Source: a virus. From it: a DNA stretch of 64,000 nt. The stretch spans positions 1-64,000 of IMG/VR virus record IMGVR_UViG_3300048583_000366; one strand, 5' to 3'. The notes beneath the pieces were generated by a model. That model saw only the letters and a list, made by a program, of their open reading frames with translations. It searched no databases and had not been told where the DNA came from. Below are positions 19,452-38,683 of this stretch, piece after piece. The position numbers and the translations under genes are program-made. Position 1 is the stretch's first letter, and the number at the start of each line of letters is the position of its first letter.

Positions 19452-19563
19452 AAAAAGTAGGTGCGTATTCGTCCCATCTGTGCCGCTCCGATGGTAATAT
19501 CTCATATCGTTAGATATGATAGGACTTGTTTATGCCTACAAAATGTGGACCCGGTGGGAGTCG

Positions 19564-19799
19564 CTATCCCTCAAAGAACTCTTCCAAGTTCTATCCAATT
19601 ATTTCTAACTGGGGTGGACTATATCATCATCTGTTCTAGATGTTGGATGCTATGGGCTCACCGTAGTGTCCCTAGTCTCTGAACCTTCTTAGGTCTTCCC
19701 CTAAGCTAGGCTGCTGATTAGCATATCTTTGCAGACTTAGCTTTCCAGCAATTCTTCCAATTTTTACCACAGTATCCCTACTATGGGGGTCCGAAATTA
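19564..19799 (-). mobile_element. ORF-less group I intron in the tmRNA T-loop
   Basis: The core elements are readable: P AATTGCTGGAAA (about 19742-19753), Q AATCAGCAGCC, R GTTCAGAGACTA (19673-19684) and S GATATAGTCC (19616-19625), with P7 formed by GACTA/TAGTC. P1 pairs the exon end GGGTT plus T with GGACCC in the intron and places a U.G wobble at the 5' splice site after U55. The intron ends in G at 19564, directly before CGACT of the T-loop. There is no homing endonuclease frame, so mobility would need help in trans. Length is 236 nt. Confidence 0.88.
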
Positions 19800-20135
19800 A
19801 ACCCACGTCCGAGAAAGAAGACAATAATCACAGCATATCACATGCTTAGTACTGGCTTCAGCGTCATTGGGAGAGCTGCCCTTCCCACGAACTTAAAAGG
19901 ATACTAGCCGCAGCGTTATCCTACTGAGCTACCTGCTCCGTAATTTGATCTGCAAGCTGATCAGTATAAAGGCTGAACCGTTTTATGGGTTCAAACTCCA
20001 CCACTTAGTTTTGAGAAAACTAAGAAAACTCGCAAGGCAGCACATATTTGCCTCGATCACTGCATCATTGTGTCTCCTTGAGCATATGCATGTGCATTTC
20101 TATTTTCTGTTGCAAGGTATAGATACCCCGGAGAA

Positions 20136-20219
20136 CTAGGCCATTACGGCTTCGTCCGCTCCTACAAATGCCATAGCATCTTCGAAACTCCAAGTAGAAA
20201 GTTCTACGTTGTCGTTTGT
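20136..20219 (-). other. tmRNA tag-peptide reading frame
   Basis: Read in the frame of the TAG at 20136-20138, the tag starts near ACA AAC GAC AAC (TNDNVELST...) and ends DEAVMA, about 27 residues, against 8-15 in most bacteria. The first bases resemble the E. coli resume region (GCA AAC GAC GAA AAC). The hydrophobic small-residue end is typical of ClpXP-targeting tags. The exact resume codon is inferred, not proven. Confidence 0.65.
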
Positions 20220-20317
20220 TTTTTGTACAGATTTAAAGTCATCTAGTACTTCTGACTGCATGTGTGATTACCACTCGCATTCCCGTCAAAACCAGGCGGG
20301 CCCGTTATGTAAAAGAA

Positions 20318-21066: not shown

Positions 21067-21421
21067 ACTTATTCTTTATATGGTATACCCATTTTAAGCT
21101 ATCTTTAACATCATCCATATTCTGATCCCTCTTCATATTCTCCTCAATCTCCTCGCACTTTACTATCTCCCTTTCCAGGTTAGGTATATTACCGTTCCAA
21201 GTCTCTTTTGCCTGGAAGAATTTTAACCTCTCTTCCAGTCTTTCTTTTAACTTTGGAATCTGTTTAGATACCTCTTTACGCAGTATTTCGTCTTCAGGGA
21301 TTCCTGTTAATACTGATGTCAAGTTTGATGCAAAAGTAGATAGTTTAGAGAGCTTCTGAGAGTCCTCATACCTCTTTAATAACTCATCTGCAGACTGTGA
21401 TAGATGCGATTGCCTTTTCAT
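21056..21421 (-). CDS. Hypothetical helical protein (121 aa)
   Basis: The 121-residue protein is very rich in Lys and Glu and is predicted almost wholly helical, with coiled-coil character from about 60 to 110. It overlaps the HTH/zinc gene by 4 bp. Function is unknown. Confidence 0.6.
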   Translation of the reverse strand: MKRQSHLSQSADELLKRYEDSQKLSKLSTFASNLTSVLTGIPEDEILRKEVSKQIPKLKERLEERLKFFQAKETWNGNIPNLEREIVKCEEIEENMKRDQNMDDVKDSLKWVYHIKNKYGF

Positions 21422-22113
21422 CTCTTTTTAATTGAAACTATTAAATCATTACCAAAATCCTCCGGTTTCTCCTCACTCTTATAAATATGTTTATTTTCTA
21501 AGTTAACTGAGGATTTTATCTCTTTATCATATATTTTGGGTAGTTCAAGATCTATGGGAGTAGTGAAAACTTTGTAATCTTCCATGGCCTCTACTTGCTT
21601 CTTTTGAAAAACATCACCTACGTGAAGAAAATAGCAGTTATAACATAGAAATTCTAAATTTTCTAATTTCCAGTTTTTTTTATTGTTGTCCAGATAGTTT
21701 ACTATTAATGGAACTTTCTCATCCAAAACTCTCTTCTCTCTGAATTTACAACGGGAACACTCCTCTTTCATGTACCCCTCAGATATTATCCTACCCTTAA
21801 TCTCTTTCATAGAGATCATATTGGTATCAACCCTGCCCTCAAGAATATCCAGTAACACAGGGCCCCTGGATTTAGTATTAGCATACTTAGGTATACCTAG
21901 CCCGGAAGGATTTAGATGTAACTCATAGAGTGATTTGCCTTCCTCATTTTTGAATTGAGATGCTATGTTCTTGTAAGTTTTAAAACTAAGTCCAAGGTAC
22001 CTGGCGGCAGCTTTATTTGACTTAGTATACTTCATAGCACGTTCTACGTCCTGCCTATCAAGTATTATCTTTCTAGTCGTTCTTTTCTTTTCTGGATTAT
22101 TGTTTGGTGGCAT
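21418..22113 (-). CDS. HTH plus HNH-like zinc-module protein
   Basis: The 231-residue protein has a helix-turn-helix at about 22-52 (VERAMKYTKSNKAAARYLGL) and a treble-clef module at about 117-165: CSRC, then PLIVNYLDNNKKNWKLENLEFLCYNC. The layout matches HNH endonucleases, but the position of the catalytic His pair reads NYLDNN, so nuclease activity is doubtful. Many phages carry this version, which may act as a DNA-binding regulator. It is flanked by overlapping genes. Confidence 0.6.
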   Translation of the reverse strand: MPPNNNPEKKRTTRKIILDRQDVERAMKYTKSNKAAARYLGLSFKTYKNIASQFKNEEGKSLYELHLNPSGLGIPKYANTKSRGPVLLDILEGRVDTNMISMKEIKGRIISEGYMKEECSRCKFREKRVLDEKVPLIVNYLDNNKKNWKLENLEFLCYNCYFLHVGDVFQKKQVEAMEDYKVFTTPIDLELPKIYDKEIKSSVNLENKHIYKSEEKPEDFGNDLIVSIKKR

Positions 22114-37036: not shown

Positions 37037-38683
37037 TTACATAAACTGACTGTAGTCAATATCTTCTTTTTTCTTTTCCCCTATAGTATACACTACAGAC
37101 TCTGTTGTGAGGATAGTGCCAGCTACGCTAGCTGCATTTTCTAAAGCTGTTATAGTAACTTTAGTAGGATCTATTATACCAGCAACAAAGGTATTAACCC
37201 TCTGACCTGTTTTTACATTGAACCCTTCCCAATATGGATCCTCAGAGGTAACTTTTTCAGTATTTATTTTGCTTAAAACAGAATGATAATCCTCTATTCC
37301 TGCATTTGCAAGGATAACTCTGAAAGGTGCGTATAAAGCTTTCTCAACTATTCTGAAGCCCATCAATTGATCATCATTATCAAATTCTAAAGTGGAGAAT
37401 TCTTCTATAGAATTTATTAAAGATACACCGCCGCCAGGAACTATGCCCATATCTAGGGCAGCTTTAGTTGCATGAAGAGCATCATCTACACGATCCTTTT
37501 TTTCTTTCATCTCAATTTCACTAAGACCTCCTACATTTATTATAGCTACTCCTCCGGTTAGTTTGGATAATCTATCTTGAAGTCTCTCCCTTTCAAAATT
37601 AGACTTAGCTAAACCTATTTGTGCCTTTATCTCATCAAGGCGCTTCTCAATACCTTCTGCAGATCCCTTACCATCTATGATAGTAGTATCTTTTGAGGAC
37701 ACACTAACCATTCTAGCTTCTCCAAAAAATGTACGAATCTCATCTTTCTTCATCTTATCTATCTTATGACCCTTGGTAGGAGCTACTACGGTTCCTCCAG
37801 TTAAGATAGATATGTCTTCTAATACATGAGTCCTACGATCACCAAAATCAGGAGCTTTTACTGCACATACTTTTATAACATTATTAGCTTTGTTTACAAC
37901 TAACAAAGCTAGAGCCTCTCCTTCAATGTCCTCTGCCACTATTAAAACTCCCTTAGAGTCTTCTGCAGCTGCTTGTAGTATCGGTACTACCTGAGATGCT
38001 CCGGTTAACTTACCATCATACAGGAAGATGTATGGTTTCTCTAACACAGATTGCATCATATTTTGATTAGTGACAAAGTAGAGTGATTTGTACCCTCTAT
38101 CAAACATCATCCCTTCCACTACCTCAAGGGAAGTTTCCCCTGTCTTTGATTCCTCGATTGCAACTACTCCGTCTACTCCAACCTTATCTAAGGCAGTGGC
38201 TATAAGATTTCCAACCTCTTCGTCATTATTGGCTGATAAAGTAGCAACCTGGCGTATTTGATCTTCAGATGATATCTGTCTGCACATCTTCTTTAAAGCA
38301 CTAACAACAGCTTTAACTGCCTTATCTATGCCTTTCTTTACTTCCACCGCATTTGACCCTTGAGCAATTACTTTAATGCCCTCTGTTACCATCATAGTGG
38401 CTAGTAGAGTTGAAGTGGTAGTACCATCCCCTGCCTTATCTGCAGAACTCTCAGACACTGTCCTTATCATCTGGGCACCTATATCTTCTACATCATCTTC
38501 TAATTTACTGAAAGCTTTAGCTACAGTTACGCCATCCTTAGTTATTTTAATAGTGCCGTCATCTCCCCTGATAATAACATTCCTGCCACCCGGGCCTAAT
38601 GTAGAAGATACGCTATTATTTAGAGCATTTATACCAGCTAATAGTTTTTTCTTTAGTTCAGTTCCAAACTCAGTCTTTATCAT
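37037..38683 (-). CDS. groEL: Chaperonin GroEL
   Basis: The 548-residue protein is full length and has the family blocks: [10 protein letters not shown] near residue 31, TKDGVTVAK near 50, [11 protein letters not shown] near 86 (nucleotide-binding), AVEEGIVPGGG-like [11 protein letters not shown] near 408 and an ATP-binding GFRIVEKAL region. The C-terminus lacks the GGM repeats of cellular GroEL. It assembles with GroES into the folding chamber in the cytoplasm. It overlaps the 72-aa gene by 4 bp and is separated from groES by that gene. It is likely used for a phage virion or replication protein. Confidence 0.95.

What the first reader, a model, noticed from the sequence alone, without database searches (positions are those of the whole stretch)
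19564..19799. Group I intron splits the tmRNA T-loop of a phage
P, Q, R and S elements (including TTCAGAGACTA and GATATAGTCC) are readable and a P1 with a U.G pair places the 5' splice site after U55. Ligation of the exons restores a perfect T-arm (GTGGG TTCGACT CCCAC) and an acceptor that pairs. The intron is 236 nt with no endonuclease. I recall group I introns at this tmRNA site in some bacteria, but a phage copy would be new to me. Splicing would gate tmRNA activity on GTP and on ribozyme folding.
Basis: partly seen in the sequence, partly recalled or inferred. Interest (0 to 1): 0.85.

Follow-up and report, generated by a model that had tools for sequence, protein, structure and literature searches.

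The report
Self-splicing intron in a phage tmRNA
A bacterial virus carries its own ribosome-rescue RNA gene (tmRNA), and that gene is split by a small self-splicing intron that must cut itself out before the RNA can work; the same split is present in more than twenty other viral sequences, where ordinary tmRNA searches miss it.

Summary
On the minus strand at 19799-19564 lies a 236-nt group I intron (Rfam RF00028, 82.8 bits, E 1.5e-19). It splits a phage tmRNA gene between U55 and C56 of the T-loop. ARAGORN finds no tmRNA in the raw sequence and a complete one after in-silico excision. P1 (U.G), P10 and omega-G are all present. The phage is a myovirus related to phages of Flavobacteriia. A near-identical tmRNA without the intron (L088, against L074) shows the exact empty site. 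The setting is known in kind: 883 intron-form tmRNAs were catalogued in 2025, all in the T-loop, with this subsite (position 3 by my reading of their numbering) reported only from Bacteroidia. New here is that this site is repeatedly occupied in viral tmRNAs: 23 IMG/VR records, including contigs near 350 kb, and one GenBank crAss-like genome. Many of these introns carry HNH or LAGLIDADG endonuclease genes on either strand. The window's intron is 86% identical to one that carries LAGLIDADG, while the tmRNAs are only 54% identical, which suggests horizontal movement with loss or gain of the endonuclease. Gating of tmRNA by GTP is unsupported. Splicing itself was not tested.

The parts
19800..20303 (-). 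tmRNA 5' exon (504 nt): acceptor 5' strand GGGCCCG at 20303, tag reading frame, CTAAGCATGT signature (19849-19839), first half of the T-arm ending GTGGGTT
   Evidence: ARAGORN on spliced sequence; acceptor 7/7 and CTAAGCATGT; coordinates
19564..19799 (-). group I intron, 236 nt, no endonuclease gene; 5' splice after U55, 3' end G (19564)
   Evidence: Rfam RF00028 82.8 bits; empty-site relatives; covariation
19546..19563 (-). tmRNA 3' exon CGACTCCCACCGGGTCCA: second half of T-loop, T-stem, acceptor with G3:U70 pair, discriminator A; CCA end not fully encoded
20136..20219 (-). tag reading frame, read as TNDNVELSTWSFEDAMAFVGADEAVMA*; homologous to tags of related phages (INDEMSTMTFDDLMAFVGADEATFA*, VNDEMSTMTFEDLMDFVGADYAVAA*). 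ARAGORN's tag AHAYAQGDTMMQ is probably wrong
   Evidence: tags of L088, L074, L075, L091, L087, L090; ARAGORN tags
19787..19804 (-). P1: exon GGGUU (19804-19800) with guide GACCC (19791-19787), U.G at the splice site
   Evidence: sequence
19792..19794 (-). P10 strand UCG, pairs with exon 2 CGA (19563-19561)
   Evidence: 3 or more contiguous P10 pairs in 20 of 26 introns
19643..19760 (-). P3 (19760-19756 with 19647-19643), enclosing P4-P6 (19751-19745 with 19717-19711; 19708-19701 with 19692-19684)
   Evidence: (compensatory changes in P3 and P6)
19617..19677 (-). P7 / guanosine site: GACUA (19677-19673) with UAGUC (19621-19617), flanking P7.1 hairpin (19672-19654) and P8 (19642-19628)
   Evidence: Rfam alignment
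19575..19612 (-). P9 (19612-19595) and P9.2-like hairpin (19592-19575); an endonuclease gene occupies the region just 3' of P9 in the closest intron (L186)

Best explanation
It is a compact group I intron in the T-loop of a phage-encoded tmRNA gene. After transcription the intron folds, binds exogenous guanosine at P7, cuts after U55 and ligates U55 to C56. This rebuilds the T-arm, so the RNA can be given its CCA end, charged with alanine and used with host SmpB to add an unusually long (about 27-aa) tag. Until splicing happens the RNA cannot form its tRNA-like domain. The intron is best seen as a mobile element that spreads among phage tmRNA genes by endonuclease-driven homing. This copy has lost, or never had, its endonuclease and persists because it is spliced out cleanly. 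Shown: anatomy, covariation, empty sites, endonuclease-bearing relatives. Inferred: splicing, tmRNA function, homing.
For: Full-length Rfam group I match. A tmRNA appears only after excision. P1, P10 and omega-G at the junction. Alignment of 18 introns: 29 of 50 pairs with compensatory changes in P2, P3, P5/P6, P8 and P9. Relatives L074 and L075 have an intron at the same bond, and L088, whose tmRNA is nearly identical to that of L074, has none. 7/7 acceptor stems with GGG/UCC, hence G3:U70, in 23 viral records. Tag frame conserved at protein level in relatives. Phage: tail sheath, DnaB nearest Flavobacterium phages, RNR nearest a Maribacter phage. Endonuclease genes in related introns: antisense HNH, antisense LAGLIDADG, sense LAGLIDADG. 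Intron of L186 is 86% identical with both ends shared although the tmRNAs are 54% identical. Tree conflict: tmRNA window+L074+L075 support 96, intron window+L186 support 82.
Against: No RNA data: splicing, expression and tmRNA use are untested. The phage record is a 67.6-kb fragment without SmpB, so function would depend on the host. The tmRNA body is long (522 nt) and RF00023 does not match the unspliced gene. The tree conflict rests on one moderate support value (82) and short alignments; in a tree that also holds uninterrupted tmRNAs the window's own position is poorly supported (21).
Confidence: 0.93

Rival explanations
1. A decayed tmRNA gene: the intron or the tmRNA no longer works and the locus is a relic.
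For: Long tmRNA body, no ARAGORN or RF00023 hit in the raw sequence, no SmpB in the fragment, no endonuclease.
Against: All core helices, P1, P10 and omega-G intact; 7/7 acceptor stem with G3:U70; tag frame conserved among relatives.
Confidence: 0.08
2. Regulatory intron: splicing is used to time or gate tmRNA (GTP level, folding, stage of infection).
For: The intron fully blocks the T-arm; it is kept without an endonuclease. A different phage (Melnitz) is proposed to control its tmRNA with a glutamine riboswitch (PMC9004378).
Against: No ligand-binding element found by Rfam in the stretch. Near-identical phage tmRNAs exist with and without the intron. Introns with endonuclease genes point to selfish spread. 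Cellular GTP normally far exceeds the need of group I introns (general knowledge).
Confidence: 0.07
3. The phage took over an already interrupted tmRNA gene from a Bacteroidia host, and the intron was never mobile in phages.
For: The same T-loop subsite is reported from Bacteroidia (PMC11915505); relatives of the phage infect Flavobacteriia.
Against: Interrupted and uninterrupted versions of nearly the same phage tmRNA; conflicting intron and tmRNA trees; phage-type tags and phage-borne endonucleases; 0 of 395 sampled Bacteroidia genomes match the strict site pattern.
Confidence: 0.1

Closest known systems
Intron-form tmRNA (ssrA) genes of bacteria, tmRNA database 2025 (PMC11915505; first reported by Williams 2002, NAR 30:179)
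   Same: Group I intron in the T-loop, -1 U paired with G in P1, omega-G, mostly without endonuclease; subsite 3 by my reading of their numbering (after the second loop base, U55) is one of their four
   Different: Theirs are described from bacteria (subsite 3 only from class Bacteroidia) and the endonucleases as LAGLIDADG; here the gene is on a phage, and related phages carry HNH as well as LAGLIDADG, often antisense. Whether any of their 79 phage tmRNAs is an intron form is in a supplement I could not read
Clostridium botulinum tmRNA group I intron (self-splicing; used in PMC2729099)
   Same: 287-nt intron near the 3' end of a tmRNA gene, described as self-splicing
   Different: Bacterial gene; the earlier known introns sit at T-loop position 7, not after U55 (PMC11915505). 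I did not align it
Phage group I introns in protein genes (e.g. psbA of cyanophage S-PM2, phage DNA polymerase genes)
   Same: Core sequence similar: S-PM2 psbA intron 78.5% identical to the L113 intron over 161 nt; polymerase-gene records match the window core
   Different: Inserted in protein genes, not in a structural RNA
Phage-encoded tmRNAs (e.g. Cellulophaga phage Calle_1; methylophage Melnitz, PMC9004378)
   Same: Complete tmRNA gene on a phage, probably using host SmpB
   Different: Uninterrupted, or permuted two-piece in Melnitz; no group I intron

Membership tests
Group I intron (RF00028) | Covariance-model match over the conserved core | tested here: met
   82.8 bits, model 1-253 of 253
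Group I intron (RF00028) | U.G pair at the 5' splice site in P1, G as last intron base, P10 | tested here: met
Group I intron (RF00028) | Compensatory base changes in the core helices | tested here: met
   29 of 50 pairs in 18 related introns; P7 itself is invariant and so uninformative
Group I intron (RF00028) | Guanosine-dependent self-splicing | not testable with these tools
   needs in-vitro transcription
tmRNA (ssrA) | tRNA-like domain with acceptor stem, T-arm and G3:U70 alanine identity | tested here: met
   after excision only
tmRNA (ssrA) | Internal tag reading frame with stop codon | tested here: met
   TNDNVELSTWSFEDAMAFVGADEAVMA*, conserved in relatives
tmRNA (ssrA) | Match to RF00023 | tested here: inconclusive
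   no match in the unspliced window, as expected of an interrupted gene; the uninterrupted relative L089 scores 65.6 bits. The spliced sequence could not be submitted to cmscan
tmRNA (ssrA) | Pseudoknots, SmpB binding, trans-translation activity | not tested
   -
Intron-form tmRNA of PMC11915505 | Intron in the T-loop at one of four subsites (2, 3, 7, 8) with -1 U and omega-G | tested here: met
   after U55, i.e. subsite 3 by my reading of their numbering
Mobile (endonuclease-bearing) intron | Homing endonuclease gene in the intron | tested here: not met
   none in the window's 236 nt; present in L074, L165, L190 (HNH-like) and L135, L139, L150, L171, L174, L178, L186, L191, L204, L212 (LAGLIDADG)

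The most novel reading that the evidence does not exclude
Phages of Bacteroidia are the main reservoir of T-loop subsite-3 tmRNA introns. The introns move between unrelated phage tmRNA genes by homing, with exchange of endonuclease type and strand. Some of the 'bacterial' subsite-3 cases now on record would be phage or prophage genes in metagenome bins.
Probability: 0.4. Interest if true: 0.65.

Novelty: new member of a known kind. Interest (0 to 1): 0.52.

Why it matters
tmRNA finders miss interrupted genes, so surveys of phage tmRNAs (e.g. 402 phages found with ARAGORN, PMC9004378) probably undercount them. The set gives natural pairs of phages with and without an intron in the same RNA gene. 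That makes it testable whether such introns are mere passengers, how they home into a structural RNA gene, and whether phages carry their own ribosome-rescue RNA to good effect.

Tried and rejected
Strict tmRNA 5'-end pattern in viral contigs: four chance hits, none with a tmRNA match. Free-standing HNH gene at 21418-22113 as the partner endonuclease: no similarity to the intron-encoded ones. ARAGORN's tag AHAYAQGDTMMQ: rejected in favour of the frame conserved in relatives. Stricter pattern in 395 Bacteroidia genomes: none; the looser pattern gave nine matches whose printed sequences look like chance. Exon/guide covariation test with a guide that departs from GACCC: only one tmRNA-like case (L389), and it is not compensated. 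P10 counts are inflated by one pair because the search pattern fixes the first G. L166 was dropped from the count: the split gene is a tRNA-Ala on a contig that looks bacterial.

Full report
WHAT IS THERE. The element lies on the minus strand. The tmRNA gene runs from 20303 (GGGCCCG...) to 19546 (...CGGGTCCA) and is interrupted at 19799-19564 by 236 nt. Rfam Intron_gpI matches 19810-19595(-) over its whole length with 82.8 bits, E 1.5e-19. ARAGORN finds nothing in the raw stretch and a tmRNA once the 236 nt are removed in silico. The junction obeys the group I rules: exon GGGUU pairs with guide GACCC, with a U.G pair at the splice site; the three guide-side bases UCG can pair with the first three bases of exon 2 (CGA, P10); the last intron base is G. 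Joining rebuilds GTGGG-TTCGACT-CCCAC. The acceptor stem pairs 7/7 and has GGG/UCC, hence G3:U70, the alanine identity pair.

THE tmRNA. The tag that ARAGORN prints (AHAYAQGDTMMQ) is probably wrong. A frame further upstream reads TNDNVELSTWSFEDAMAFVGADEAVMA* (20219-20136). It is clearly homologous to the tags of related phages: INDEMSTMTFDDLMAFVGADEATFA* (L088, L074, L075), VNDEMSTMTFEDLMDFVGADYAVAA* (L091) and GEEKSSFTFEDALAFVGADYAVAA* (L087). The exact resume codon is my reading. The phage lacks SmpB in the part held and would use the host's (inference).

THE PHAGE. The record is a 67,654-base IMG/VR fragment. It has a tail sheath, a phage GroEL, RNR, DnaB and a UvsX-like recombinase. DnaB is nearest Flavobacterium phage vB_FspM_immuto (48.5%) and RNR is nearest Maribacter phage Panino (62.6%). 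The host is therefore probably a member of Flavobacteriia (inference).

EMPTY AND OCCUPIED SITES. Among phages related by DnaB, whole-record searches with RF00028 and RF00023 gave two with an intron and five with an uninterrupted tmRNA. The tmRNA of L088 (uninterrupted) and the spliced tmRNA of L074 differ at only a few positions, and the intron sits exactly between T55 and C56. L074 carries a 798-nt intron with an antisense HNH-type gene; L075 carries the same intron at 278 nt and retains the stretch that encodes the last codons of that gene.

HOW WIDESPREAD. I searched IMG/VR for the site-plus-guide-plus-core pattern GGGTTN{4,16}GGACCCN{20,50}GAATTGC and checked each hit for a core, a matching T-stem and a matching acceptor stem. 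This gave 23 records (the window included) with an interrupted tmRNA, a 7/7 acceptor stem and GGG/UCC ends; 14 of them also pass ARAGORN after excision. They include 348- and 345-kb contigs that look alike (L180, L181) and a 355-kb contig (L223); all three carry a sheath match. Not every record was shown to be viral by a hallmark gene; nine of the larger ones have a sheath match and some a terminase. The GenBank crAss-like genome cr128_1 (MT774392) has an 869-nt intron at the same site, unannotated. One viral contig (L356) has an intron at the other, commoner T-loop position, after TTCGAT. Intron lengths fall mostly into two classes: 188-278 nt without a gene, and 639-869 nt, which carry an endonuclease gene wherever I examined them; L215 (452 nt, no long ORF) lies between. 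LAGLIDADG genes occur sense (L150, L186, L191) and antisense (L135, L139, L171, L174, L178, L204, L212); HNH-like genes occur antisense (L074, L165, L190). The family of one member of each type was confirmed by profile (L186, L074); the rest are assigned by similarity to these.

STRUCTURE TEST. In an alignment of 18 of these introns, RNAalifold predicts 50 pairs and 29 show at least one double change that keeps the pair, spread over P2, P3, P5/P6, P8 and P9. P7 is invariant and says nothing. P10 of three or more pairs is possible in 20 of 26 introns; my search pattern fixes the first of these pairs, and the sequences are related, so I do not attach a probability.

MOBILITY. The window intron is 86% identical to that of L186, shares both of its ends, and lacks only the block with the LAGLIDADG gene. 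The tmRNAs of these two phages are 54% identical, whereas the window tmRNA is 61-64% identical to L074 and L075, whose introns are only 62-63% identical to the window's. In trees of the interrupted set, window+L074+L075 has support 96 for tmRNA and window+L186 has support 82 for introns; with uninterrupted tmRNAs added the window's position is poorly supported. This fits horizontal spread followed by loss, or gain, of the endonuclease gene. It is suggestive, not proof: the alignments are short. L186 is a phage contig (endolysin, phage DNA polymerase).

WHAT IS KNOWN. Group I introns in the tmRNA T-loop are well known. The 2025 database paper lists 883 unique intron-form sequences at four T-loop subsites, position 7 being the main one and position 3 found only in class Bacteroidia; 36 of the 883 carry an endonuclease, and the paper names the LAGLIDADG type (PMC11915505). 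By its numbering, as I read it, the present site is position 3. Its main text mentions 79 phage tmRNAs but no phage intron form; its supplement could not be read. The C. botulinum tmRNA intron is described as self-splicing (PMC2729099). A survey found tmRNA in 402 phages using ARAGORN (PMC9004378), a program which gave no tmRNA for the interrupted genes in the window, L074 and L075. No held paper found by five text searches describes a phage tmRNA intron; most subscription journals are not held.

JUDGEMENT. The element is a genuine group I intron of a known kind at a known subsite, in a setting (phage tmRNA) that I did not find described and that turns out to be recurrent. The claim that it gates tmRNA on GTP is not supported: no ligand-binding element was found, and nearly identical phage tmRNAs exist without the intron. 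Self-splicing is inferred from anatomy and covariation and needs an in-vitro test.

Noticed in passing
window 16661-16540 (-): A 122-nt tRNA-like match (31.8 bits) with a plausible GCA anticodon loop (GTGGTCTGCAAAACCAC) and far too much sequence between the arms; ARAGORN does not call it. Possibly a decayed or unusual tRNA-Cys.
   Followed up: partly
window 19939-19904 (-): Inside the tmRNA body lies GGAGCAGGTAGCTCAGTAGGATAACGCTGCGGCTAG, which looks like the first half of a tRNA; the window's tmRNA is about 110 nt longer than that of L088, L074 and L075.
   Followed up: no
window 37037-38683 (-): The phage encodes its own GroEL-type chaperonin (phrog_5725, PF00118).
   Followed up: no
window 21418-22113 (-): Free-standing HNH endonuclease about 1.1 kb from the tmRNA gene; not similar to the endonucleases inside related tmRNA introns.
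   Followed up: partly
L166:433-730: A tRNA-Ala-like gene split at the same T-loop bond by a group I intron (92.3 bits), on a contig filed as viral but next to a gene that reads like paaA, so probably bacterial.
   Followed up: partly
L356:3524 onward: Viral contig of 102 kb with a tmRNA interrupted after TTCGAT (the commoner subsite 7), with what looks like an antisense LAGLIDADG gene.
   Followed up: partly
L381 (GenBank MT774392, crAss-like phage cr128_1): Deposited genome with an unannotated tmRNA interrupted by an 869-nt group I intron.
   Followed up: partly
record of L181 (344,634 bases), 82646-83065: SmpB gene (E 7.6e-51) on a large contig that also has an interrupted tmRNA; the similar 348-kb contig (L180) has none.
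   Followed up: no
L175:3304-3454: Hatchet ribozyme match (75.1 bits) on the same viral contig as a group I intron at a GGGTT site.
   Followed up: no
tmRNA tags of L074, L075, L087, L088, L090, L091 and window: A family of long phage tags (about 24-27 aa) with a conserved F-D/E-D-x-M/L-x-F-V-G core, quite unlike the usual 10-aa tag.
   Followed up: partly
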